From positions 1 through 64,000 of the forward strand of contig NZ_BMOC01000017.1 in the NCBI RefSeq assembly GCF_014646875.1: a stretch of 64,000 nucleotides of DNA, written 5' to 3'. This DNA comes from Halobellus salinus. Its GTDB lineage: Archaea; Halobacteriota; Halobacteria; Halobacteriales; Haloferacaceae. Positions 16,329-54,570 of this stretch are shown here, piece after piece (within the stretch, counting starts at the first letter, position 1; each line of letters starts with the position of its first letter). A program made the translations under genes and the position numbers. The notes under the pieces were generated by a model. The model worked only from the letters and a program-made list of their open reading frames with translations, was not told the DNA's origin and searched no databases.

Positions 16329-16625
16329 CTACCTGCTCTCGCGCTGTTCGACCTTGTTCAACTCGATCAGCAGCCGGAACACCGCCTTCACCAGGTTCGA
16401 GTCGACGTCGAAATGCTCGGCGTTTCGACCCGCCCGGTCCATCACGCGTTCCTCCTGGCCCTCATCGGTCGTTGGCAGCCCCTGGTCGGCTTTCACGCCC
16501 GCGATGGAGTCGGCGACGTAGGTTCGGCGCGCGATCAGTTCGACGATCTCCCGATCGATGTTCTCGATCTCCTCGCGGAGTTCGTCCAAGGACGGTTCCC
16601 CGTCGGTGTTGTCGTTATTGCTCAT
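16329..16625 (-). CDS. aroQ: Chorismate mutase (AroQ class)
   Basis: This 98-residue all-helical chorismate mutase makes prephenate for Phe and Tyr. The motif LDELREEIENIDREIVELIARRTYVADSIAGVKADQGLPTTD shows the arginines and lysine that bind chorismate, followed by DEGQEERVMDRAGRNAEHF. The first 15 residues are acidic and polar. The start overlaps the stop of the shikimate kinase gene (ATGA), so both are translated from one mRNA and act in the same pathway. Confidence 0.93.
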   Translation of the reverse strand: MSNNDNTDGEPSLDELREEIENIDREIVELIARRTYVADSIAGVKADQGLPTTDEGQEERVMDRAGRNAEHFDVDSNLVKAVFRLLIELNKVEQRESR

Positions 16626-17473
16626 AAGATGTGTGCTCCGTCGGTCCGCGTGGTCGTTCGCCAGGTCCGGCCGCCGCGCTCGCTCCACCGACTGCGGACG
16701 CGGTCGAGCGCGCCGCGCTCTCCGACTGCGACGACGCTCGGGCCTGTTCCCGACAGTGACACCCCCGCGGCGTGGGGCATCGCTTCGACCGCAGGATCGG
16801 GTGAGAACCCGAGCGCCGCCGAAAAGGCCAGGCCGTTAACCGTCATCGCCTCGGCGTAGCGTCCCTCGAGGGCGAGGTCCGCGACCAGTTCCGCCATCGG
16901 CGCGACGTTCGCGCACCGTTCCACGTCGGCATCCGCGGAGTAGGCCCGTTCGTCGGGCGTCCACACGAGCACGTCCCACGCCACCTCGTCGCGGGCGAGC
17001 AGTTCGTCCTCCCGATTATCGGTGACGGTGACACCGCCGAGCATCGACGCCGACGCGTCGTCGAACGCCCCAGTGACAGTGACGCCGACATCCCGCGCGG
17101 CGCGGACGCCCAACCGGCACGCCTCGACCGGAGCGGGGTCGACGCCGACGGCGTCCGCAGTCGCGAGCACGGTCGCGTTGGCGGCGGCGCTCGAACTCTT
17201 CAATCCGGCAGCCATCGGCACGTCACTCTCGGTTCGAACTGTTCCGCCCGACACGTCGCTGCCGCCGTAGGCCTCGACCGCGAGTTCGACACACCGCTCG
17301 ATCAGTCCAGTGTCGGCGCCGTCGTCCTCAGCGACCGTCCCCGTCACGCGCCCCGAGTCGTCGAGTTCGACGGTGGCTGAGGTTTCGATATCGATGGCGA
17401 ACGCTGAGCCGACGCCGGTCGACAGCGCGTTCAGCACCGTGCCCGCCCCGAGCGCTGCTGCACGACCTCGCAT
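16622..17473 (-). CDS. aroK: Archaeal shikimate kinase (GHMP family)
   Basis: This kinase phosphorylates shikimate in the aromatic pathway. It is the archaeal GHMP type, unrelated to bacterial AroK, with 283 residues. The ATP-binding motif is VPMAAGLKSSSAAANA. The C-terminal part has VSLSGTGPSVVAVG, the third GHMP motif, and MRGRAAALGAGTVLNALSTGVGSAFAID is the typical N-terminus. An AT run (cttttagc on the reverse strand, about 17496-17503) lies 25 bp before the ATG, suggesting a leaderless transcript. It forms an operon with chorismate mutase. Confidence 0.94.
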   Translation of the reverse strand: MRGRAAALGAGTVLNALSTGVGSAFAIDIETSATVELDDSGRVTGTVAEDDGADTGLIERCVELAVEAYGGSDVSGGTVRTESDVPMAAGLKSSSAAANATVLATADAVGVDPAPVEACRLGVRAARDVGVTVTGAFDDASASMLGGVTVTDNREDELLARDEVAWDVLVWTPDERAYSADADVERCANVAPMAELVADLALEGRYAEAMTVNGLAFSAALGFSPDPAVEAMPHAAGVSLSGTGPSVVAVGERGALDRVRSRWSERGGRTWRTTTRTDGAHIL

Positions 17474-18481: not shown

Positions 18482-19753
18482 TCAGTGGTCGTCGTGGTTG
18501 TGGTCGTCGTGGTTGTGGTCGTCGTGGTTGTGGTCGTCGTGGTTGTGGTCGTCGTGGTTGTGGTCGTCGTGGTTGTGGTCGTCGTGGTTGTGGTCGTCGT
18601 GGTTGTGGTCGTCGTGGCTATCCCCGTGCGCCTCGTGATCGTGATGCTCGTCCTCGTGTGGGTCGGTCGGTACCCCACTCAGGTTCCCCTCGTCGTCGAA
18701 CCGCTTCGCGCGCAGGAACCGCGTCCGGTAGCGGTTCGCGCCCTCGTAGACATCAGCCTCCCGAACCTCGTCGGTGCGGTCCTCGGCCACCGTGTCGATG
18801 ATCTCTTCGATCTGTTCCTTCTCGGAGGGCGTCAGCTCGAACTCGTAGGTGTGTGTCTCTTCCTCCTCGAGTTTCGTCCACCGCCTGGCGGCGGCGACAA
18901 CGAGCGAGCACGGCTCCCGGCAGGGGAACGCCCCGGCTCCGCCATCGGCCTCGAGTTCGTGGTCGGCGTCGTACTCCCACTCCCGGCGCTTGAGACACTG
19001 GGAGTCGACACAACACGTCTCGGCCACCCAGTCGACCGCCTCGGACGGTAACTCCTCTACGACGCCGTAGATGCCGGTCTGGCGCTCGGCGGTCTCTCGC
19101 CAGTGGGTCACGTCGAGGTCGCCCTCGCGTTCGAGGTTCCAGTTCGCGATCGACGCGGGGTAGATCGTGTCCAGTGCCTCCACGGCGTCGCGGCCGTCGA
19201 GGTCGGGGAAGATCCACCCCGAAGCCAGCGAGGGCGCGGTCCGGAGCGGCCGGTATCGGCCGTCCTCGTCGTAGGTCGACAGCTCCCGGGCGTCCAGGGG
19301 GTCGTGGTAGGCGTCGAGGTCCCCTGGGTCGGCGCTAGCGTCGTCAGCGTGGCGGATCTCGTAGCGCCGCTGGCCGTCCTCGCCGAGCGTTACGGTCACG
19401 AGGACCTCTCCCCACTCGGTCTCCAGTCCGGCTCGGAGCGCGTCGTACCGCTCCGGAACGATGTGGTCGGCGGCGGCTTCGGCGTGTCGGAGGAACGCCC
19501 GACGGTGCCGGCTGCGGCTCCCGATGGCCTCCGCCCAGAAGTACCAGTTCGTGACGTAGGGCGCGACGTGGTCGGAGCGAACCACCTCCCGGAGCTTCGA
19601 TTCCGACACCCCCTCGTGGGTCGCGTCGGGGGTTTCCAGGGTGTAGGCGCCGTCGCCGTCGGCTGTCACCCGGAGGCCGTCGAGATCGATCGGTCCCTCG
19701 GTGTCGACCCGGTCGAACAGGGTGTGGACCTGCTCGTTCCGCACGTCAGTCAC
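18482..19753 (-). CDS. DR2241-type CbiX-associated protein with His-rich C-terminus
   Basis: This 423-residue protein resembles DR2241, a family encoded next to CbiX chelatases. The N-terminal two thirds include EAIGSRSRHRRAFLRHAEAAADHIVPERYDALRAGLE. Near residue 245-285 a cysteine cluster appears (ETCCVDSQC and FPCREPC), consistent with an Fe-S or zinc site reported for the family. The C-terminus, from about residue 365, is rich in His and Asp and ends with nine HDDH(N) units, a likely Ni/Co-binding tail. It overlaps cbiX by 8 bp. A role in metal delivery or cobalamin synthesis is inferred from the neighbour. Confidence 0.82.
   Translation of the reverse strand: MTDVRNEQVHTLFDRVDTEGPIDLDGLRVTADGDGAYTLETPDATHEGVSESKLREVVRSDHVAPYVTNWYFWAEAIGSRSRHRRAFLRHAEAAADHIVPERYDALRAGLETEWGEVLVTVTLGEDGQRRYEIRHADDASADPGDLDAYHDPLDARELSTYDEDGRYRPLRTAPSLASGWIFPDLDGRDAVEALDTIYPASIANWNLEREGDLDVTHWRETAERQTGIYGVVEELPSEAVDWVAETCCVDSQCLKRREWEYDADHELEADGGAGAFPCREPCSLVVAAARRWTKLEEEETHTYEFELTPSEKEQIEEIIDTVAEDRTDEVREADVYEGANRYRTRFLRAKRFDDEGNLSGVPTDPHEDEHHDHEAHGDSHDDHNHDDHNHDDHNHDDHNHDDHNHDDHNHDDHNHDDHNHDDH
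18485..18619 (-). repeat. 15-bp tandem repeat, 9 units, encoding HDDHN
   Basis: The unit gtggtcgtcgtggtt is repeated eight times without change (18485-18604), followed by a ninth copy with one change (18605-18619). The array stays in frame and reaches the codon before the stop of the DR2241-type gene. Perfect identity at the third codon positions points to recent expansion by slippage or unequal exchange, so copy number probably differs between strains. Confidence 0.95.
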
Positions 19754-20621
19754 CCGTCGCTGTCGTCTCGCGGGTCTCCTCGCGCACGGTTGCGATGGCG
19801 GCGTCGATGTCGGCCCCGGCCTCGGATGCGCGTTCGAGCACCACGTCGGCCATCAGTCCCTCGGTCCCGACCGCGCCGGCGTACCAGATCCGGTGGTCGT
19901 CGACGGTCGCGGGGATGTCGTACCCGGTCCGGTAGTCGTCGGTCAGCCCCATGTCCTCGGGGATGTCCTCCTGGGTGTGGAAGCCGTCGGCGATGAAAAG
20001 CGGGACCACCACCACGTCCTCACTCTCGAAGTAGTCGGTCACATCGTCGACCTCGGGCTCCTCGTCCATGTACAGCGCCTGGACCTCGTCGAAACGACCC
20101 ATCTCGCGCACGCGACCGGCGTGATACTCGATCGCCTTCGCGGAGTTCTCGTTGCGCTCGGTGCCGTGGCCGACGACCGCGAACCCGAACCCCTCGCCTA
20201 CGTCGGGATCGTCGACCACCGTCTCGGCGCGCCGGACCAACACGTCGGTCATCGCCCTGTGGGTACCGACCGGCCCGCAGTAGTGGACGGTCTGGCCGGT
20301 GTCCTCGGCGGTGAGCGTCGCAGTGTCCGCACTCAGCCCGTCGGACTCCCACTCGGAAACGTCCCACTTCGACAGTCTGAGTTCCCGCGGAATGACCTGT
20401 TCGGTGAAATACCCCTCGCTGATGAACATCGGGACGACGTAGACCTCCTCGCTTTCGACGGTGCGGAGGACTTCCCTGAGTGATGGTTCTTCCTTCCAAA
20501 AGCCCGTCTTCACCTCGTCGAACGCGCCTGTCGCGCGGATGGTGTCCGCGTGTCGATGGGTCGGCGTCGACGAGTCGGGGTTGAGGTGCGACCCGTGGGC
20601 CACGATGACCAACGCTTGCAT
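19746..20621 (-). CDS. cbiX: Sirohydrochlorin cobaltochelatase CbiX
   Basis: This class II chelatase inserts cobalt into sirohydrochlorin early in cobalamin synthesis. It has 291 residues with two repeated CbiX halves: MQALVIVAHGSHLNPDSSTP with the metal-site His in the first, and FGFAVVGHGTERNENSAKAI in the second. VVPMFISEGYFT and VVPLFIADGFHT are the matching later motifs. The ATG at 20621 starts directly at the conserved strand; a longer frame upstream has no family similarity. It overlaps the His-rich DR2241-type gene downstream. Confidence 0.92.
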   Translation of the reverse strand: MQALVIVAHGSHLNPDSSTPTHRHADTIRATGAFDEVKTGFWKEEPSLREVLRTVESEEVYVVPMFISEGYFTEQVIPRELRLSKWDVSEWESDGLSADTATLTAEDTGQTVHYCGPVGTHRAMTDVLVRRAETVVDDPDVGEGFGFAVVGHGTERNENSAKAIEYHAGRVREMGRFDEVQALYMDEEPEVDDVTDYFESEDVVVVPLFIADGFHTQEDIPEDMGLTDDYRTGYDIPATVDDHRIWYAGAVGTEGLMADVVLERASEAGADIDAAIATVREETRETTATGD

Positions 20622-20714
20622 ACCATACGTTGGGGACGGCGCACTCTTAGGGACTTCGGGTTCCACCACCGATCCGGTGGCTTCCGGATCTCGAACCCCT
20701 CCAGCCCGCGTGGC

Positions 20715-21377
20715 CTACGCGTGGTCGGGGTCGCCGGTACACGCCCGGATGACCTCACCGACGACATCCCGGTCAGCTGCAATCAGATACCGCCGTCCCT
20801 CCACCAAGGTCGTCGAGTGCTGCACTGCGACGTGCCCATCGGTTTCGGCGATCACAACCGATCCCTCCGGGAGAACGTCCGAAACCACCTCGCCCGCGGC
20901 CGGCGCGCCGTACCCGACTCGGATGTCGAGAATCTCGAGGTCCCCCGTCACCTCCTCGATGGTCCGGACGTCGCTGCCGGTGAGCGCGTTGACCGCCGCG
21001 CGGACACTGGCGCGTTCCGGGAAGTACACCTCGTCGACGTACTCGCTGTACTCGTCGCCCGCGCGGTCCTCGATCCGGGCCACGGTCCTGACCTCCGGGG
21101 CCAACTCCGTTGCGGCCATACACACCACCAGGTTGGTGTCTTCCTTGTCGGTCAGCGCGCCGACGACCTCGGTCCGGTCGGTGATGGCCTCCCGGAGCAC
21201 CGACGGCTTGGTCGCGTCGCCCCGACTGACCCCGATGTGGTCGTGGTCGACGGCCCCGACAGCGCTTGGGTCGGGATCGACCACGGTTACCTCGCGCCCG
21301 CGGTCCGCGAACTGTTGTGCGACTCGGTGTCCGACGCGCCCGCTCCCGGCGATCACGACGTGCGGCGTATCAACCAT
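20715..21377 (-). CDS. TrkA-type potassium channel/transport regulatory protein
   Basis: This 220-residue cytoplasmic protein has an RCK/TrkA-N nucleotide fold at residues 1-130 (HVVIAGSGRVGHRVAQQFADRGREVTVVDPD) and a TrkA-C domain at about 140-210. Such proteins bind NAD(H) or ATP and gate potassium uptake systems, a central need in salt-in halophiles. No transporter gene is adjacent, so its partner is elsewhere. A TATA-like taattatta lies just before the ATG. Confidence 0.9.
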   Translation of the reverse strand: MVDTPHVVIAGSGRVGHRVAQQFADRGREVTVVDPDPSAVGAVDHDHIGVSRGDATKPSVLREAITDRTEVVGALTDKEDTNLVVCMAATELAPEVRTVARIEDRAGDEYSEYVDEVYFPERASVRAAVNALTGSDVRTIEEVTGDLEILDIRVGYGAPAAGEVVSDVLPEGSVVIAETDGHVAVQHSTTLVEGRRYLIAADRDVVGEVIRACTGDPDHA

Positions 21378-21524
21378 ACCTCCGAATCACACTAATAATT
21401 AATAAGGTTCCTTGCCGATATACGGCGGCCTTTTTGTCGCCACCGACGATGCGGCGTGTCTCCCGGGTGACGCGCGGGTCGCGTGGCCACGCATCCGTCG
21501 CAGGCGCCCGAGACGAGCACACTA

Positions 21525-21532
21525 CTTAATAG
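21525..21532 (+). promoter_or_regulatory. TATA-like element of the acyl-CoA ligase operon
   Basis: cttaatag lies in actacttaatagcgcc. A start site about 25 bp downstream (near 21555) would give a leader of about 125 nt before the ligase ATG at 21681, enough to include a 37-codon ORF. Confidence 0.5.
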
Positions 21533-21570
21533 CGCCGTCCGGAAAGAACAGAACCCACGGACGCCATCAG

Positions 21571-21684
21571 ATGATCGGAGACATACACCACGACAGCGAA
21601 CACGGCCGGGTCGCCCCCGGGCACTCGATCGGGCACGACCCGTCAGGCGGGACGCGGCGTCCCCCGGGAGCGATCCACCGATGA
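21571..21684 (+). CDS. 37-residue upstream ORF coupled to acyl-CoA ligase
   Basis: An ATG at 21571 opens a 37-codon frame (MIGDIHHDSEHGRVAPGHSI then GHDPSGGTRRPPGAIHR). Its TGA overlaps the ligase ATG as ATGA, the same coupling seen between true operon partners in this window. It begins about 15 nt after the predicted transcription start. The peptide is rich in His, Gly and Pro and has no known domain. It may be a small protein or a translated leader that brings ribosomes to the ligase start. Confidence 0.4.
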   Translation: MIGDIHHDSEHGRVAPGHSIGHDPSGGTRRPPGAIHR

Positions 21685-23198
21685 ACTTTGCAAACCACGT
21701 CGACATCGCGGCGCGTACCCACGCCGAGTCGCTCGCGGTGGCGGATCCACACCGGGAGGTAAGCTACGCCGAACTGTCCCGCGAGACCGACGCCGTCGCG
21801 AGGGGGCTGGCCGACCTCGGCGTCGATCCCGGCGACCGCATCGCGCTGCTGCTCCCGAACAGCGTGACGTTTACCACGGCGTACTTCGGCGCCATGAAAC
21901 GCGGCGCGGTCCCGGTTCCGGTCAACCTCCGGTTCGATCCCGAGACGGTCGGCTTCGTTCTGGAGAACACGGACGCGTCGGCACTCGTCACGAGCGGTCG
22001 CTTCGAGGAGACGGTCACCGACCGCAACGCGGGAGTCGACCACCTGATCGTCGCGGACGGCGACGCCGGCGTCGGGTACGACGAGTTACTCGACGACGGC
22101 GGCGCGACCGTCGACGTGGCCGGACGCCGCAGCGACGAGATCGCGGAGATCCTGTTCACGAGCGGGACCACCGGCCGCCCGAAAGGCGTCACACACACCC
22201 ATGGCAACCTCGTGGCCAACGGCTGGGGATACGTCCGTTGTTTCCCGTTCTACTCGTCTGAGACCGTCGGCCTGACGGTCGTGCCGCTGTTTCACGCCGC
22301 GGGGTTGAACGTCACTACGACGCCGCTGACTCTCGTCGGCGCCGAGAACCACTTCCTCCCGACGTGGGACGCCGAGACTGCCCTGGAGACGATGGCCGCC
22401 CGCGGGGTGACGGCCGCGATGTTCGTCCCCACGATGCTCATCGACCTGCTCGAACACGGGGTCGAAAAATACGACCTCTCGGCGCTGTCGCACGTGATCG
22501 TCGGCGGCGCCCCGATGCCGAAAGAGCGGATCGAGGCTGTCGAAACGGCGCTCGGGGTCACGCTCCTAGAAGGCTACGGGATGACCGAGACAACGCCCGC
22601 GGCCGCGGTCAATCGGCCGGGACAGGACGTCCGAAAGGCCGGAAGCATCGGTCCGCCGATGCGGGACATCGTCGACGTGCGGATCGAGGATCCAGAAACC
22701 GGCGAGACAGTCGGCACCGGCCGAAGAGGCGAACTCCTGTGGCACGGCGACACGGTCACCCCCGGGTACTGGAACCGCCCCGAGACGAACGAGGAGGCGT
22801 TTGTCGAGCGCGACGGGCGGACGTGGCTCCGGTCGGGAGACGTTGGGCGGATGGACGACGACGGCCACCTGTTCGTGGAGGACCGCCTCGACGACATGAT
22901 CGTCACCGGCGGCGAGAACGTCTACCCCCGGGAGGTCGAGGACGTGAGCTACGAACTCGACGGCGTCGTGGAGGTCGGTGTCGTCGGGACACCGCACGAC
23001 CGCCTCGGCGAGCAGGTCACGGCAGTCGTCGTTTCGGATGGGTCGGTGACTGCCGCGGACGTCAAGTCGATCTGTCGTGAACGCCTCGCGGAGTATAAGC
23101 TACCGCGCTCGGTCGAGTTCGTGGAGTCGATCCCGAAAACCTCGACCCGAAAGGTGGACAAGGTGGCGCTCAGAGACCGGTTCAGCGAGGACGGGTGA
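21681..23198 (+). CDS. Acyl-CoA ligase (AMP-binding, FadD-like)
   Basis: This 505-residue enzyme of the ANL superfamily activates a carboxylic acid to acyl-AMP and then acyl-CoA. It shows the AMP-binding motif ILFTSGTTGRPKGVTHTHGN, the A5 motif LEGYGMTE, the A7/A8 region WLRSGDVGRMDDDGHLFVEDRLDDMIVTGGENVYPREVED and the catalytic lysine near the C-terminus in PKTSTRKVDK. Substrate is probably a medium or long fatty acid, which sequence alone cannot fix. It stands alone apart from the small ORF overlapping its start. Confidence 0.92.
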   Translation: MNFANHVDIAARTHAESLAVADPHREVSYAELSRETDAVARGLADLGVDPGDRIALLLPNSVTFTTAYFGAMKRGAVPVPVNLRFDPETVGFVLENTDASALVTSGRFEETVTDRNAGVDHLIVADGDAGVGYDELLDDGGATVDVAGRRSDEIAEILFTSGTTGRPKGVTHTHGNLVANGWGYVRCFPFYSSETVGLTVVPLFHAAGLNVTTTPLTLVGAENHFLPTWDAETALETMAARGVTAAMFVPTMLIDLLEHGVEKYDLSALSHVIVGGAPMPKERIEAVETALGVTLLEGYGMTETTPAAAVNRPGQDVRKAGSIGPPMRDIVDVRIEDPETGETVGTGRRGELLWHGDTVTPGYWNRPETNEEAFVERDGRTWLRSGDVGRMDDDGHLFVEDRLDDMIVTGGENVYPREVEDVSYELDGVVEVGVVGTPHDRLGEQVTAVVVSDGSVTAADVKSICRERLAEYKLPRSVEFVESIPKTSTRKVDKVALRDRFSEDG

Positions 23199-30076: not shown

Positions 30077-30986
30077 CGGTCTCCCGCATCCGCGGGTCAA
30101 GCGCGTCGCGCATGCCGTCGCCGAGGAGGTTGAACCCGAGGACGGTCAGCGCCAGCGCGAGTCCCGGGAAGAACGACCACCACCACGCCCCGGAGAACAG
30201 TCCGAACTCGACGCCGTTCGACAGCATCATACCCCACGTCGGTTCCCCGGGGCTGGCGCCGAACCCGAGAAACGACAGCGCCGCGATATCGATAATCGCG
30301 AGCCCGTAGTTGAGGGTCGACTGGACGGTGATCGGCGCGAGGCAGTTGGGGAGGACGTGCCGGATCAGGAGCCGGGGGTCTGTCGCCCCCAGCGCGCGCG
30401 TCGCGTCGGTGTACTCGTCTTCGAGCACTTTCAGCGCGGCCCCACGGACAACGCGGGCGAACCGCGGGGTGTACACAAGCGTCAGCGCGCCGACCGCGCG
30501 CCACAGCCCCAACTCCTCCGGGAAGATGGTGACGAGCGCCAGCGCCAGGAGGAGCGACGGGAACGACAGCAGCACATCCATAGTCCGCATGATGACGTTG
30601 TCCGTGAGGTCGCCGTAGTACGCCGCGACGATCCCGAGCCCGACGCCGAGCACCGTCGACGCGGCAACCGTGACGGTCCCGTAGAGCACCGCGTACCACG
30701 CGCCGTAGAGCACTCGCGGGAAGATATCCCGTGCCTGCCCGTCGGTGCCGAACACGTACTCGGAGCTCGGCGGCGCCTCGTCGGGGTTGACACCGAACTG
30801 CGTTGTGAGCAGTGCTTCGAGGTCGTAACTGAAGCGGGCGTAGACCGCCAGGGCGACCACAAGCGCGATGACGGCGAGCCCGGTCACCGCAAGCCGGTTC
30901 GACAGGAGCTGTGAGAGGAACGGACTGGCTCGGATCCGCTCGATGATGCCGCGGTCGACCGCCGTGGTTTGGGTTTCGGTGCTCAT
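30069..30986 (-). CDS. dppC: Peptide ABC transporter permease DppC-like
   Basis: This 305-residue inner subunit has an N-terminal helix, a periplasmic-type loop (FSYDLEALLTTQFGVNPDEAPPSSEYVFGTDGQARDIFPRVLYG) and a five-helix BPD_transp_1 core. The coupling EAA loop is YTDATRALGATDPRLLIRHVLPN, which contacts the ATPase. It forms a heterodimer with DppB to import oligopeptides or similar solutes. The start overlaps the dppB stop by 4 bp. Confidence 0.93.
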   Translation of the reverse strand: MSTETQTTAVDRGIIERIRASPFLSQLLSNRLAVTGLAVIALVVALAVYARFSYDLEALLTTQFGVNPDEAPPSSEYVFGTDGQARDIFPRVLYGAWYAVLYGTVTVAASTVLGVGLGIVAAYYGDLTDNVIMRTMDVLLSFPSLLLALALVTIFPEELGLWRAVGALTLVYTPRFARVVRGAALKVLEDEYTDATRALGATDPRLLIRHVLPNCLAPITVQSTLNYGLAIIDIAALSFLGFGASPGEPTWGMMLSNGVEFGLFSGAWWWSFFPGLALALTVLGFNLLGDGMRDALDPRMRETVD

Positions 30987-31996
30987 TGTTCGATTCGGGG
31001 GTCGAGAACGGAGTAGGTCACGTCCACGCCGAGGTTGACGAGCGTGTACAGCACCGCGAACACCAGCACTGTCGCCTGCACGACGGGGTAGTCGCTCCGG
31101 CTGATCGCGTCGACGAGCAGGGTCCCGATACCGTTGATCTCGAAGACCGTCTCGGTGAGGACCGCGCCGCCGAGCAGGGAGCCGAACTGGATCCCGATCA
31201 CGGTGATCACGGGGATGAACGCGTTCCGCAGCCCGTGTTTCATGATCGTGATCTTCTCGCCTTGGCCCTTCGCCCGAGCGGTTCGCATGTAATCCTGGCG
31301 GATCACTTCAACCATCGAGGAACGCATCATCCGGGAGATCAGCGCCATCTGGTAGATCCCGAGCACGACCACCGGTAGTGCCAGGTGGACGACCGCCGAC
31401 CGGAACGCCGCGACGTTGCCCGCCAGCAGCGTGTCCACCAGGATGAACCCCGTCTGTGTCTCGACGAAGTACGCCGAGCCGATCCGGCCGCTCGTCGGCA
31501 ACAGCCCGAGGAACTGCGCGAAAAGCAGGATCAAAAGCGGGCCGCTCCAGTAGATGGGAATGCTGATCCCACTAAGCGCGCCGACACGGGTCAGGTGGTC
31601 GGTCAAGGTGTCCTGTCTGACCGCGCTGAGAATGCCGAGCGGCAACCCGAACAGGAGTCCGGCGACCTCGCCCAGCAGCGCGAGTTCGATCGTGATCGGC
31701 AGCCGGTTCGCGAGAATCTGGCTCACCGGCGTTCCGCGCTGGATCTGGTAGGACTGCCCGAAGTCGAACGCGGCGACATCGCCGAGGAACCGGACGTACT
31801 GCTGCCACAGCGGGTCGTCCAGCCCGAGGTCGCCTCTGACCTCGTTGATGAACTCCTGGCTGGCGCGCTCACCGGCGATTGTGACCGCCGGGTCGCCCGG
31901 AGAGAGGTGGAGGATCGCAAACACCACTGTCGCGACCCCGAACAGCACGGGAAACAGGAGCAAGAGCCGTTTCACGAGGAACTGCTTGGAGACCAT
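30983..31996 (-). CDS. dppB: Peptide ABC transporter permease DppB-like
   Basis: This 337-residue permease has six hydrophobic segments. The N-terminal KRLLLLFPVLFGVATVVFAILHLSPGDPA is the typical first helix and GDPA motif of DppB/OppB. The EAA loop is RQDYMRTARAKGQGEKITIMKHGLRNAFIPVITV. It pairs with DppC and lies 35 bp downstream of the binding-protein gene. Confidence 0.93.
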   Translation of the reverse strand: MVSKQFLVKRLLLLFPVLFGVATVVFAILHLSPGDPAVTIAGERASQEFINEVRGDLGLDDPLWQQYVRFLGDVAAFDFGQSYQIQRGTPVSQILANRLPITIELALLGEVAGLLFGLPLGILSAVRQDTLTDHLTRVGALSGISIPIYWSGPLLILLFAQFLGLLPTSGRIGSAYFVETQTGFILVDTLLAGNVAAFRSAVVHLALPVVVLGIYQMALISRMMRSSMVEVIRQDYMRTARAKGQGEKITIMKHGLRNAFIPVITVIGIQFGSLLGGAVLTETVFEINGIGTLLVDAISRSDYPVVQATVLVFAVLYTLVNLGVDVTYSVLDPRIEQ

Positions 31997-44867: not shown

Positions 44868-45007
44868 CTCACTCGCGGACTTCGCGCAACCGATCGACGT
44901 GGCTCACTCGCGGACTTCGCGCAACCGATCGACGTGGCTCACTCGCGGACTTCGTGCAACCGATCGACGTGGCTCACTCGCGGACTTCGCGCAACCGATC
45001 GACGTGG
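44868..45007 (-). repeat. 35-bp tandem repeat, 4 units, copied from the 3' end of a gene
   Basis: Four 35-bp copies (44868-44902, 44903-44937, 44938-44972, 44973-45007) differ by one base only. The unit ctcactcgcggacttcgcgc plus 15 further bases corresponds, on the reverse strand, to the last 11 codons and stop of the small gene ending at 44974 (HVDRLREVRE then TGA). The first copy is the gene's own end and the other three lie behind it as non-coding duplicates, each carrying a stop codon. Confidence 0.95.
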
Positions 45008-45159
45008 CTCATCACGACCGCCAGGGTCGCGTCGGCGTCGGTGTACCCGCGGTCGTAGTCGTCGTGCGCGGCGTCGATGTCGTCGATGACGCCGGCAACG
45101 ACGTCTTCGGTCGGTTTCGATCCGTTCTCGGCGTCGAGCGTGTCGGCAGCGTCAGTCAC
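44974..45159 (-). CDS. Small acidic protein of unknown family
   Basis: From the GTG at 45159 the frame encodes 61 residues (MTDAADTLDAENGSKPTEDV and so on, ending MSHVDRLREVRE). It is acidic, helical and codon-biased as a haloarchaeal gene. tcttttcacc-like AT bases about 25 bp upstream (45183-45190) could be the TATA box. The divergent helicase gene starts 104 bp away. I do not recognise the family. Its 3' end is the source of the 35-bp tandem repeat. Confidence 0.6.
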   Translation of the reverse strand: MTDAADTLDAENGSKPTEDVVAGVIDDIDAAHDDYDRGYTDADATLAVVMSHVDRLREVRE

Positions 45160-47161: not shown

Positions 47162-48724
47162 GTGCTCCGGAAAGACCTCCTGCGCGTCTCCCGGGCGGGC
47201 GGCGGCTACCACCCGCAGTTCGCCGACCGGAGCCACCGCCCGGTCGCAGCCCGGACCATCGGCGTCTTCCAGGGTCACGTTGAGGAGCCCCGGGGTCGCC
47301 TCGACAACGCGCTCGACGGTCTCGAAGCCGACGCCGAGGATTTCAAGCTGGTCCGGGGGTTCGCCGCGCTGCTGGAGCGGGATGCCACCTTCGAGGCTCG
47401 GGCACCGCTGCCGCCGGTGCGCGTCCGGCGGAGCGTTTTCGAGGCCGCGGAGTCGGTCGGCGGCGTCGTCGACGACGGGGGCCGATCGGCGGCGCTCACG
47501 GCGGCGGCAGAGCGGTTGGGTGCCGATGTCGACGCCGTCGAGGCGTCGCTGTACGCCGACCGCGACGTCAACGAGGTGCTCTCGGCGTTCGACTCGCGGT
47601 GGGATCCCGACGGGTTGATAGAGCAGTACAACCTCTCGCTCGCCCAGACCGCGCTGTTCGACGCGACCGAGGTCCGGATCCGAAGCTCCGACCCCAAACG
47701 CCTGGTGTCTGCGGTCAAGCGGCTCGGACTCCTCTACGAGATTCGGCGACACGGCGACGACGACCACGAGCGGGAACTCGTCGTCACTGGCCCTGACGCG
47801 CTCTTTCGACGCACGCGACGCTACGGCACCGCCTTCGCCAGGCTGCTCCGGAGCGTCGCGGCGGCCGCCGAGTGGTCGCTCGAAGCGACGGTCGACGACC
47901 GCGGGACCGACCGCGAACTCCGCCTCGGCCCCGACGATGTGTCGGTGCCGGGCGTCGATCCGATCGTCGAACCGACCTACGACAGCGGGGTCGAGGCCGA
48001 CTTCGCCCGCCGTTTTTCGAGTCTGGACCTCGACTGGGACCTCTCACGGGAGCCGGAGCCGCTGGCGGCGGGCGCCCGCGCGATGATCCCGGACTTCGCG
48101 TTCGACTACCGGCCGGGCGGCCGCGGAGCCGGGGCGGGCGGCGAAGGGTCGGCCGATACGCCTTCTCTTCGGGTCTTCTTCGAGGTGATGGGGTTCTGGA
48201 CGCCGGGGTACGTCGAAAAGAAACTCGACCAGTTCGGGAGCGTCGACGACGACGTCGAACTCCTGGTCGCGGTCGACGAGTCGTTGGGGGTGGGCGAGGA
48301 GATCGAAGCGCTCGACCATCGGGTGGTCACGTACACCCGACGAGTCCGTGTGAAAGACGTCGTGGACGCACTCCGGGAGTACGAGGCCGAGCTGGTGGCG
48401 GCGGCCGCGGCGTCGCTACCGGCCGAACTCGTCCCCGACGCCGACGTGATCGGGCTGGATGCGGTGGCTGCCGACCGTGGCGTGAGCGTCGACGCCCTCG
48501 ATTCCGTGGCGTTTCCCGACCACGAGCAGGTCGGGCGGACGCTGGTCCGTCCCGCTGTGCTCGACGCCGTCGACGCCGAACTGGAGGTCGGGCTGTCGCT
48601 GTCGGACGCAGAGTCGGTCCTCGACGAGTACGGCATCGACGACGCCTCCGCGACGCTGTCGCGGCTGGGCTACCGGGTCGAGTGGGTGGGACTCGGCGGC
48701 GGGACGCTCCACGAAAGGGAGTAG
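47162..48724 (+). CDS. bax1: Bax1 nuclease (DUF790), XPB partner
   Basis: This 520-residue protein of the DUF790 family is known in archaea as Bax1, which binds XPB and cuts beside repair bubbles. The start MLRKDLLRVSRAGGGYHPQF is typical. The C-terminal nuclease core has the acidic residues in ARAMIPDFAFDYRP and LRVFFEVMGFWTPGYVEKKL, a PD-(D/E)xK-like layout. The GTG at 47162 gives the family N-terminus. The last codons (GTLHERE) and stop are the first copy of a 29-bp tandem repeat. Confidence 0.9.
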   Translation: MLRKDLLRVSRAGGGYHPQFADRSHRPVAARTIGVFQGHVEEPRGRLDNALDGLEADAEDFKLVRGFAALLERDATFEARAPLPPVRVRRSVFEAAESVGGVVDDGGRSAALTAAAERLGADVDAVEASLYADRDVNEVLSAFDSRWDPDGLIEQYNLSLAQTALFDATEVRIRSSDPKRLVSAVKRLGLLYEIRRHGDDDHERELVVTGPDALFRRTRRYGTAFARLLRSVAAAAEWSLEATVDDRGTDRELRLGPDDVSVPGVDPIVEPTYDSGVEADFARRFSSLDLDWDLSREPEPLAAGARAMIPDFAFDYRPGGRGAGAGGEGSADTPSLRVFFEVMGFWTPGYVEKKLDQFGSVDDDVELLVAVDESLGVGEEIEALDHRVVTYTRRVRVKDVVDALREYEAELVAAAAASLPAELVPDADVIGLDAVAADRGVSVDALDSVAFPDHEQVGRTLVRPAVLDAVDAELEVGLSLSDAESVLDEYGIDDASATLSRLGYRVEWVGLGGGTLHERE

Positions 48725-48845
48725 GAAACGGGACTCTCCACGAGAGGGAGTAGGAAACGGGACGCTCCACGAGAGGGAGTAGGAAACGGGACGCTCCACG
48801 AGAGGGAGTAGGAAACGGGACGCTCCACGAAAGGGAGTAGGAAAC
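48701..48845 (+). repeat. 29-bp tandem repeat, 5 units, copied from the 3' end of bax1
   Basis: Units at 48701-48729, 48730-48758, 48759-48787, 48788-48816 and 48817-48845 share gggacgctccacgaaaggga followed by gtaggaaac with one or two changes. The first copy is the coding end of bax1, with its TAG stop. The four others follow as non-coding duplicates, and a partial sixth (gagacgctacgag) runs towards the next gene, whose stop lies only 7 bp after the array. Confidence 0.95.
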
Positions 48846-48851
48846 GAGACG

Positions 48852-49439
48852 CTACGAGCGGAGGTCCTCACGCCGCCCCTTCGGAACGGTCGAACGGAGT
48901 TCGCCGTGGAGGTAGAGGCCGACGCCGATCGGTTCCACGCCGCCCGCGATGTCGTGCGCCGCGATCACGTACCCCCAGTCGCCGTCCCACCGCGGGAGGT
49001 CCTGGTCGTCACCGCGGGCGAACCGGGCGGCTTCCTCACCGTCGAGGGTGACGACGTTCCGGGTCGCCTCGGGGCCGAACCGCTGGACCGCGTTGGTCGA
49101 GGGTTTCCAGTGCTCCTGGCGGGTCCGGAGGATCCGCAGCCCAAGCCCCTCGGCGTCGACTGGGGAGACGACGTCGCCCGCGAACGCCCAGAGTTTGCCG
49201 TTCCCGCGCTCCCAGAAGGTGTGGCTCTCCCACGTGCTCGGCGGGATCCCGTACCGGTCGTCCCACCACTCGATCACCTCGTTCCGAGTGGGTCGGCCGG
49301 GAACCACCCGGTCGCCGGCCGTCGCGGGGAGGCGGTCGAACCGGTGGCTGTCGTTCTCGGGTGGGTCGGCGTCCGACGCTGCCGCGGACCCGGCGTCGGG
49401 GTCGGTCCCGTCGCTGGAGTCGGTCCCATCGTCGCTCAC
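48852..49439 (-). CDS. DUF7122-like protein, partner of RNA methylase
   Basis: This 195-residue protein has an acidic Ser/Asp linker (residues 1-40). The folded part FDRLPATAGDRVVPGRPTRNEVIEWWDDRYGIPPSTWESHTFWERGNGKLWAFAG includes DAEGLGLRILRTRQEHWKPSTNAVQRFGPEATRNVVTL, which resembles the PUA-like domains that accompany RNA-modifying enzymes. Its GTG overlaps the stop of the NSUN-type methylase gene by 4 bp. It probably supplies RNA binding for that enzyme (inference). The DUF number is from memory. Confidence 0.78.
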   Translation of the reverse strand: MSDDGTDSSDGTDPDAGSAAASDADPPENDSHRFDRLPATAGDRVVPGRPTRNEVIEWWDDRYGIPPSTWESHTFWERGNGKLWAFAGDVVSPVDAEGLGLRILRTRQEHWKPSTNAVQRFGPEATRNVVTLDGEEAARFARGDDQDLPRWDGDWGYVIAAHDIAGGVEPIGVGLYLHGELRSTVPKGRREDLRS

Positions 49440-53469: not shown

Positions 53470-54570
53470 TCAGTCGGGGTTCGACTCGGGCCCGGGCTCC
53501 GGAACCGCCCCCGGTTCGGGGTTCTCGCCGGTGTCCGCCGTCGCATCCGCCGAGCGTGTCGTGTCCGCCGTCGCATCCGCCGAGCGTGTCGTGTCCGCCG
53601 TCGCATCCGCCGAGCGTGTCGTGTCCGCCGTCGCATCCGCCGAGCTTGTCGTGTCCGCCGTCGCATCCGCCGAGCTTGTCGCGTCTGCCGGACCGTCTGC
53701 CCGCGTGTCGGACCCGCTGTCACGCCGTTCGGCGCCGGGAGCCGGCTGGATCAGCCGGATGTCGCCCGAGGCACGGATCGTCCCGTCAACCTCCGCGCCG
53801 TCGTGGAGCTCCAGCGCCGAACACGAGATGTCGCCGCGGACGTGGGCGCCGTTAGCGACGGTGACCGTCCCGTCGCGGGTGGTCACGTCGCCGTGGACCT
53901 GCGTCCGTTCGCCGATGTCGATGTCGTCGCGAGCGCGGAGGCTCCCGAAGACATTGTTGTCGGCGCCGACGTCGATGGCCTCCGCGCGGAGGTTGCCGTG
54001 GAGCCGACACCCGTCGCCGACCGTCGCCGGAGTCGACACCCGCCACGCGTCGTCCGACACTGTCGATCCCCGCGGGATCACCAGCGGGTCCTCGTCGCTG
54101 TCGCCGGAGAGCGCTTCCGCGAGTTCGTCTGCGGCCTCGTTCTCCCCGATCGACAGGAGCTGTGAGAGCACCAGGAAATAAAAGACCAGGGTCGGAACCG
54201 GGTTCCGGATCACGATCCACCCGTTGGCCTCGAACCCCTCCTCGATGTCGACGTCGTCGCCGATATCGAGGTCGCCGGAGACCATCAACCGGCCGCCGAT
54301 GTGGACGCGTTCGCCGAGGTAGGCGTCGTCACCGACCAGGACGTTGCCGGCCACGTCGCACCACACGTCCAGCCGGCAGTCGCTCTCGGCCTCGATGTCG
54401 CCACCGAACGTGACGCGCTCGCCCGCGAGGACGTTCCGCCCTCTGACGCCGAACTCCACCGTGCTCTGGCCGCCGGCGACGATGTCGCCGTCGGTCACCA
54501 GATCGTGCTCCTCGGCGGTGGTGCCGTCGGGGATCTCCAACGCGTCGAGCGGGTCCTGACCGAGTGCCAC
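53470..54570 (-). CDS. Bactofilin-like polymer-forming protein with membrane segment and repeat tail
   Basis: This 366-residue protein consists of short beta-helix turns, as in bactofilins/polymer-forming proteins: VFGSLRARDDIDIGERTQVHGDVTTRDGTVTVANGAHVRGDISC and similar turns near the N-terminus. A hydrophobic stretch at residues 125-141 (PVPTLVFYFLVLSQLLS) splits the beta-helix and probably binds the membrane. The C-terminus has five ADATADTTRS-type repeats and a Pro-rich end. The GTG at 54570 is favoured because gtttattag (reverse strand) lies 22-30 bp upstream. A scaffold role is likely, by family. Confidence 0.8.
   Translation of the reverse strand: MALGQDPLDALEIPDGTTAEEHDLVTDGDIVAGGQSTVEFGVRGRNVLAGERVTFGGDIEAESDCRLDVWCDVAGNVLVGDDAYLGERVHIGGRLMVSGDLDIGDDVDIEEGFEANGWIVIRNPVPTLVFYFLVLSQLLSIGENEAADELAEALSGDSDEDPLVIPRGSTVSDDAWRVSTPATVGDGCRLHGNLRAEAIDVGADNNVFGSLRARDDIDIGERTQVHGDVTTRDGTVTVANGAHVRGDISCSALELHDGAEVDGTIRASGDIRLIQPAPGAERRDSGSDTRADGPADATSSADATADTTSSADATADTTRSADATADTTRSADATADTTRSADATADTGENPEPGAVPEPGPESNPD
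53531..53680 (-). repeat. 30-bp tandem repeat, 5 units, encoding TTRSADATAD-type linker
   Basis: Five 30-bp units begin at 53531, 53561, 53591, 53621 and 53651. The first three are identical; the last two share one change (cgagcg to cgagct). They stay in frame and encode a Thr/Ala/Asp-rich linker about 20-70 codons before the stop of the bactofilin-like gene. Confidence 0.95.

What the first reader, a model, noticed from the sequence alone, without database searches (positions are those of the whole stretch)
18482..20621. CbiX paired with a protein carrying a nine-unit HDDH tail
The cobalt chelatase gene overlaps a DR2241-type gene with a cysteine cluster and a His/Asp tail of identical repeats. 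Together they look like a metal insertion enzyme plus a metal-storage or delivery partner whose capacity can change by repeat number.
Basis: partly seen in the sequence, partly recalled or inferred. Interest (0 to 1): 0.5.

Follow-up and report, generated by a model that had tools for sequence, protein, structure and literature searches.

The report
Iron-chelatase gene pair with histidine tail
In a salt-loving archaeon, two overlapping genes of a kind usually named after cobalt (vitamin B12) chelatases most likely insert iron to make siroheme instead, and the partner protein carries a fast-changing histidine/aspartate repeat tail that may buffer metal.

Summary
On the minus strand a CbiX gene (19746-20621) overlaps by 8 nt a DR2241-family gene (18482-19753) with an Fe-S-type cysteine cluster and a tail of nine HDDH units, encoded by 8.9 identical 15-nt repeats. 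The cobalt reading does not hold. This is the only CbiX gene found in a 99% complete genome without a CbiG match, and it fits the class (cbiX2) that haloarchaeal annotators predict to be a ferrochelatase. In 119 haloarchaeal genomes, all 87 with DR2241 encode siroheme users (AhbA/B-type heme synthesis or nitrite/sulfite reductase); 28 of 32 without it have none. CbiG shows no association. In four archaeal genomes examined CbiX and DR2241 are one fused frame; fused or paired forms sit beside uroporphyrinogen-III methyltransferase or nitrite/sulfite reductase in haloarchaea and Deinococcus. Best reading: a two-subunit sirohydrochlorin ferrochelatase. The His/Asp tail is an optional, fast-evolving addition: 84 of 119 distinct DR2241 proteins have no tail histidine, 7 have eight or more, in differing repeat units. 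Metal buffering by the tail has a precedent (Bacillus CbiX-L) but is unproven. New variant of a known kind.

The parts
19746..20621 (-). CbiX-type class II chelatase gene of the haloarchaeal cbiX2 class (ATG at 20621; upstream in-frame GTG at 20669)
   Evidence: PF01903 two stretches; PRK02395.1-1 equivalog 573.6 bits over cut-off 324; best PDB match 2jh3
20166..20168 (-). codon of His168 (307-aa numbering), first conserved chelatase His, C-terminal half
   Evidence: H in 117 of 118 CbiX2 sequences, the other X; aligned with the GHG of A. fulgidus CbiX-S
19977..19979 (-). codon of His231 (307-aa numbering), second conserved chelatase His, C-terminal half
   Evidence: H in 118 of 118; in the N-terminal half the matching place is Tyr87 (115 of 118)
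18482..19753 (-). DR2241-family partner gene, 423 aa, GTG start
19746..19753 (-). 8-nt overlap of the end of cbiX and the start of the DR2241 gene
   Evidence: an 8-nt overlap is also estimated in 23 of 135 loci, duplicates and the window's own locus included
19520..19738 (-). DUF7348 N-terminal domain
   Evidence: PF24039 80.6 bits, cut-off 27
19127..19459 (-). DR2241 stabilising domain
   Evidence: PF18069 150.2 bits, cut-off 26.4
18881..19126 (-). 4Fe-4S-type domain with four invariant cysteines
   Evidence: PF18009 118.7 bits, cut-off 27; invariant columns in 25 sequences
18485..18617 (-). array of 8.9 identical 15-nt units encoding (HDDHN)8-HDDH, ending at the stop codon
   Evidence: block-mean pLDDT 35-48 over the tail of the model

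Best explanation
The pair is the sirohydrochlorin ferrochelatase module of this Halobellus-type archaeon. CbiX2, a duplicated class II chelatase with its His pair in the C-terminal half, puts Fe2+ into sirohydrochlorin to make siroheme for nitrite/sulfite reductase and for AhbA/B-type heme synthesis. DR2241, with its 4Fe-4S-type domain, is its partner subunit, fused to it in some other haloarchaea and in Deinococcus; an iron/redox sensing or iron-handing role for it is inferred. The His/Asp tail is a dispensable, disordered, recently expanded addition that most likely raises local Fe2+/divalent metal near the chelatase (inferred, and the least certain step). Shown by computation: domains, co-occurrence, fusion, operon context, tail turnover. 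Not shown: activity, metal specificity, complex formation, metal binding by the tail.
For: Own genome: one CbiX gene and no CbiG match, but two AhbA/B-type genes (4 domains) and a NIR_SIR gene. Of 119 genomes, AHB or NIR_SIR is present in 87 of 87 DR2241+ and 4 of 32 DR2241- (Fisher 2.7e-23); CbiG in 32 of 87 and 14 of 32 (p 0.53). Of the four exceptions, G270 has cbiX2 cut off at a contig end, G157 is 62% complete, G257 has only a partial NIR_SIR match, and G174 is a real exception. Both states occur inside genera g37, g52, g58 and g59, each scored genome following AHB/NIR_SIR. In four archaeal genomes (L142-L145) one frame holds CbiX, DR2241 and Fer4_23; in G192 it lies between a ferredoxin-nitrite-reductase-like gene and uroporphyrinogen-III methyltransferase. 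In 12 of 16 DR2241+, AHB-, NIR+ genomes of the order set, the NIR_SIR match is 2.0-2.6 kb from the DR2241 match. Three Deinococcus plasmids have the CbiX protein beside cobA and nitrite/sulfite reductase with cysC, PAPS reductase and sat. In the 14 control genomes DR2241 is found only in H. volcanii and Deinobacterium chartae; both also have CbiX, AHB and NIR_SIR, and D. chartae has no CbiG match. His168/His231 are conserved, the arrangement of the proven ferrochelatase Paracoccus CbiX with essential His127 and His187 (PMC4063343, abstract and passages; C-terminal region per PMC7689651, passage).
Against: Class II chelatases often lack metal specificity and it cannot be predicted from their structures (PMC7689651, passage). 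G174 has NIR_SIR and CbiG but no DR2241 and no close cbiX2, so another enzyme can do the job there. In G165 the two genes are on opposite strands, and in 2 of 135 loci they are more than 300 nt apart. In the window the pair is not beside siroheme genes; in the two loci whose neighbours were identified (L106, L124) these are DUF7523, cysS and adenylosuccinate synthetase. PMC4063343 (Discussion) says small CbiX of archaea may well be cobaltochelatases. The genomes are related, so Fisher values overstate independence. DR2241 positives were a hand-picked sample; negatives were all those the two surveys found.
Confidence: 0.8

Rival explanations
1. One reading: a cobaltochelatase for cobalamin whose partner stores cobalt in the tail.
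For: CbiX family name; B. megaterium CbiX-L, a cobaltochelatase, has a C-terminal extension with a 4Fe-4S centre and a long His-rich region proposed to store or deliver metal (PMC7689651, passage).
Against: No CbiG match in a 99% complete genome and no other CbiX gene; 55 of 87 DR2241+ genomes lack CbiG while 14 of 32 DR2241- genomes have it; among the five genomes with tails of eight or more His that were scored for CbiG, only G018 has it. Against this last point: most scored Halobellus-type genomes with 4-7 tail His do have CbiG.
Confidence: 0.05
2. The chelatase serves siroheme as above, but the His/Asp tail has no metal role: it is a low-complexity acidic tail of the kind halophilic proteins tolerate, grown by slippage in GAC/CAC codons.
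For: 84 of 119 distinct DR2241 proteins have no tail His, so the tail is dispensable; GAC and CAC differ by one base and dominate the codons; the closest relative in the tree (86% identity in the core) has a different repeat unit and 6 His.
Against: Among 1089 acidic ORFs in 81 sources, nine had 8 or more His in the last 60 residues and five of these are DR2241. Of the other four, one is antisense to a larger ORF that reads like an ABC-transporter permease and three look like wrong-frame ORFs by eye (not tested). Rich tails need six changes on the tree, so His has been raised repeatedly in this protein.
Confidence: 0.45
3. A broad-specificity class II chelatase used for both iron and cobalt, with specificity set by metal supply.
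For: Reviewed lack of specificity in this enzyme class (PMC7689651, passage).
Against: Cobalamin producers of the family carry a second, higher-scoring CbiX gene near CbiG, e.g. G092, G086 and G072.
Confidence: 0.1

Closest known systems
DR2241 of Deinococcus radiodurans (PDB 2jh3) and its plasmid paralogue WP_010889272.1
   Same: CbiX halves plus DR2241 and Fe-S-type domains; two 2jh3 chains are the only fold matches of the model at E 0.001 or better
   Different: One chain in Deinococcus, two overlapping genes here; extra DUF7348 domain and His/Asp tail here; the crystallised copy lacks the C-half GHG motif that the window protein and the plasmid paralogue keep (alignments)
Haloarchaeal cbiX2 (HVO_1128), predicted ferrochelatase
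   Same: The class to which the window CbiX best fits: kept without de novo cobalamin synthesis, as in the argument of PMC3403918 (passage) and the prediction of PMC8305020 (passages)
   Different: DR2241 has no occurrence in the main text of PMC8305020 and does not turn up there or in PMC3403918 in the library search; supplements were not read; HVO_1128 itself was not aligned here
Bacillus megaterium CbiX-L
   Same: Chelatase associated with a 4Fe-4S centre and a His-rich stretch (PMC7689651, passage)
   Different: Cobaltochelatase; catalytic His in the N-terminal half; cluster and His-rich stretch on the same chain
Paracoccus pantotrophus CbiX, proven sirohydrochlorin ferrochelatase
   Same: His pair in the C-terminal half; siroheme role (PMC4063343, abstract, passages and Discussion; PMC7689651, passage)
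   Different: No DR2241 partner is described in the parts read; that PDB 4ccs (231 residues, named CBIX) is this protein is recalled

Membership tests
Class II sirohydrochlorin chelatases (CbiX/SirB/CbiK) | one or two CbiX domains | tested here: met
   PF01903 two stretches, 116.2 bits
Class II sirohydrochlorin chelatases (CbiX/SirB/CbiK) | pair of active-site His | tested here: met
   His168 and His231 conserved in 117 and 118 of 118
Sirohydrochlorin ferrochelatase (Paracoccus CbiX type) | His pair in the C-terminal half | tested here: met
   second N-half His replaced by Tyr87
Sirohydrochlorin ferrochelatase (Paracoccus CbiX type) | genome that needs siroheme | tested here: met
   AHB and NIR_SIR in G000
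Sirohydrochlorin ferrochelatase (Paracoccus CbiX type) | Fe2+ insertion activity | not testable with these tools
   needs an assay
Cobaltochelatase of de novo cobalamin synthesis | cobalamin corrin pathway in the genome | tested here: not met
   no CbiG_C match in G000; other corrin genes not searched
DR2241 family | DR2241 domain plus Fer4_23 domain | tested here: met
DR2241 family | bound 4Fe-4S cluster | not testable with these tools
   four invariant Cys only
B. megaterium CbiX-L | MXCXXC motif and His-rich stretch on the chelatase chain | tested here: not met
   read from the translations: the chelatase chain has no such tail and the partner's Cys are in CCVDSQC and CREPC
Metal-storage/metallochaperone His-rich tails | metal binding by the tail | not testable with these tools
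   sequence only

The most novel reading that the evidence does not exclude
DR2241 is a dedicated Fe-S subunit that senses iron or redox state and gates iron entry into the siroheme/heme branch, and its His/Asp tail is an evolvable iron buffer whose capacity changes by in-frame repeat slippage and has been raised repeatedly in haloarchaea.
Probability: 0.25. Interest if true: 0.6.

Novelty: new variant of a known kind. Interest (0 to 1): 0.4.

Why it matters
The iron-insertion step was left out of the published reconstruction of haloarchaeal heme synthesis (PMC8305020, passage). The co-occurrence and fusion data here support the cbiX2 prediction and add DR2241 as its partner in archaea and Deinococcus. 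Such proteins are named after a cobaltochelatase family, so the name probably misleads. The optional tail gives a natural series for testing whether His-rich appendages help chelatases get metal.

Tried and rejected
Cobalt role: rejected. AHB as the only user: not enough by itself, since 20 of 87 DR2241+ genomes lack AHB, and all 20 have NIR_SIR. Tail linked to cobalamin: no consistent link seen. Neighbours as a clue in the window's own family: DUF7523 (84 of 104 loci, other strand) and housekeeping genes, uninformative. Fold prediction of DR2241: confident for about the first 160 residues, poor in the Fe-S part (pLDDT below 50 at 216-304), so it adds only the two 2jh3 matches and low confidence in the tail. 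Within-species repeat variation could not be tested: no second strain of the species turned up among the loci fetched. The lack of Tyr/Val in rich tails was dropped as an argument because His-free tails have almost none either.

Rows dropped: L070 from the tail count (no anchor); duplicate loci collapsed to 119 proteins. The 119 genomes are a different set: all 10 DR2241-negatives of 170 family genomes, all 22 non-family negatives among 391 order genomes of at least 97% completeness (all 22 negative again with more candidates scored), the own genome, 14 of its 16 genus mates, and hand-picked other positives (28 in the family, 44 in the order).

Full report
WHAT IS THERE. On the minus strand a CbiX gene (19746-20621) and a DR2241-family gene (18482-19753) overlap by 8 nt. 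The partner has DUF7348, DR2241 and Fer4_23 domains, four cysteines invariant in the 25 aligned sequences, and a C-terminal tail (HDDHN)8-HDDH written in 8.9 identical 15-nt units. The nearest named relatives are Halobellus. The genome is a 54-contig draft, 99.26% complete.

IT IS PROBABLY NOT A COBALT SYSTEM. The own genome has two CbiX-domain matches, both in this one gene, and no CbiG_C match, although the CbiG model does find Haloferax volcanii in the control set. It has four AsnC_trans_reg2 domains in two genes (the AhbA/B type; that this Pfam family marks siroheme decarboxylase is recalled, not from a call) and one NIR_SIR gene. PMC3403918 (passage) raised that cbiX2 may be a ferrochelatase because it persists where de novo cobalamin synthesis is predicted absent; PMC8305020 (passages) predicts one CbiX as cobaltochelatase and the other as ferrochelatase and gives HVO_1128 (cbiX2) as not isofunctional with known cobaltochelatases.

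CO-OCCURRENCE. I scored 53 family genomes and 66 order genomes. Over 119 genomes AHB or NIR_SIR is present in 87 of 87 with DR2241 and in 4 of 32 without; CbiG in 32 of 87 and 14 of 32. The 32 negatives are all that searches turned up (at 97% completeness or more, rechecked); the 87 positives are a hand-picked sample of those found. Of the four exceptions, G270 carries cbiX2 running off a contig end, G157 is 62% complete, G257 matches NIR_SIR only at profile positions 102-153, and G174 is a genuine exception with NIR_SIR and CbiG but neither DR2241 nor a close cbiX2. Genera g37, g52, g58 and g59 contain both states, and every scored genome in them follows the rule, so more than one loss is involved. 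Fisher values ignore relatedness. In the 36 genomes searched with the window CbiX, matches of 50% identity or more over 250 residues or more occurred only in DR2241+ genomes and in G270; G298, without DR2241, has a 40-residue stretch at 53%, perhaps a remnant. Among 14 control genomes DR2241 is found in H. volcanii and Deinobacterium chartae only; both have CbiX, AHB and NIR_SIR, and D. chartae has no CbiG match.

FUSION AND OPERONS. In G186, G072, G192 and G221, one open frame of 571-696 aa holds CbiX, DR2241 and Fer4_23. G192 has a ferredoxin-nitrite-reductase-like gene before it and uroporphyrinogen-III methyltransferase after it; in G072 the methyltransferase also follows and a NIR_SIR match lies within 0.5 kb of the CbiX match. 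In 12 of the 16 DR2241+, AHB-, NIR+ genomes of the order set, NIR_SIR lies 2.0-2.6 kb from DR2241; in the other four it is far away or on another contig. Plasmids of Deinococcus ficus, D. radiodurans and D. wulumuqiensis carry the CbiX protein next to cobA and nitrite/sulfite reductase, with sulfate-assimilation genes, in one direction in D. ficus and divergent in the other two; the D. radiodurans one matches 2jh3 over nearly its whole length. Halorussus halophilus has DR2241 followed directly by cobA; Natronorubrum bangense has the pair without siroheme neighbours. In G165 CbiX and DR2241 are about 1.7 kb apart on opposite strands. PMC1274311 (passage) lists DRA0012 and DR2241 together as predicted sirohydrochlorin cobaltochelatases.

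MECHANISM. His168 and His231 (307-aa numbering) are conserved in 117 and 118 of 118 CbiX2 sequences, while the second place of the N-half is Tyr (115 of 118). This is the C-half arrangement of Paracoccus CbiX, a proven sirohydrochlorin ferrochelatase (PMC4063343, abstract, passages and Discussion; PMC7689651, passages). The same Discussion holds that small archaeal CbiX may well be cobaltochelatases; the window protein is the two-domain form. Inferred: CbiX2 inserts Fe2+; DR2241 binds it through its folded domains and carries an Fe-S cluster whose role, sensing or structure, is open. PMC7689651 (passage) notes that Fe-S centres in several chelatases are not needed for catalysis.

THE TAIL. Among 119 distinct DR2241 proteins (the window included), tail His counts are 0 in 84, 1-3 in 17, 4-7 in 11 and 8 or more in 7. 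The 7 rich tails lie in one 31-row group of the tree (94/86), two in its Halobellus half and five in the half with Halobaculum, G169 and a metagenome genome; both halves also hold rows with 0-3 His, and the rich state needs six changes over the 119 rows. One His-bearing ancestor of the group is not excluded. Units differ: 15 nt in the window, 27 nt in L086 and in L040, 9 nt in L106. The closest relative in the tree (L040, 86% core identity) has 6 tail His in a different unit. So the tail turns over much faster than the core. In 81 sources, 1089 acidic ORFs gave nine with 8 or more His in the last 60 residues; five are DR2241. Of the other four, the one in the window (30947-31375) is antisense to an ORF that reads like an ABC-transporter permease; three look like wrong-frame ORFs by eye. 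Taking 81 DR2241 rows, Fisher p is 2e-4 with the four counted as real and 2e-6 without (a rough figure, since the sources are centred on DR2241 and related). This favours selection for His in this protein, consistent with metal buffering beside a chelatase, but is no proof. Richness does not follow cobalamin synthesis in a simple way: of the five rich-tailed genomes scored, only G018 has CbiG, while most scored Halobellus-type genomes with 4-7 tail His do have it.

NOVELTY. The cbiX2 ferrochelatase prediction is published. DR2241 as its constant partner, its tie to siroheme users, and the optional His/Asp tails were not found in my paper searches (open-licence papers only, supplements not read). 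I rate it a new variant of a known kind.

Noticed in passing
window 20715-23198: A TrkA-N gene and an AMP-binding acyl-CoA ligase-type gene sit between cbiX and the DUF7523 gene; each is found in only 1 of 104 related loci, while DUF7523 is near the pair in 84 of 104, suggesting an insertion in this lineage.
   Followed up: partly
window 44868-45011, 48700-48853, 53531-53690: Three other near-perfect tandem arrays with periods 35, 29 and 30 nt and 4-5 copies.
   Followed up: no
window 16329-17473: A chorismate mutase (CM_2) gene next to a GHMP-kinase-type gene, each found in 15 of 104 loci.
   Followed up: no
genus g13 (G050-G056): Seven family genomes have no match to CbiX, DR2241, CbiG, AhbA/B-type or NIR_SIR models, which points to loss of the sirohydrochlorin branches; one of the seven is 79% complete.
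   Followed up: partly
PDB 2jh3 against L156 5941-7413: D. radiodurans has two CbiX-DR2241 proteins; the crystallised one lacks the C-half GHG motif, the plasmid one beside cobA and nitrite/sulfite reductase keeps it.
   Followed up: partly
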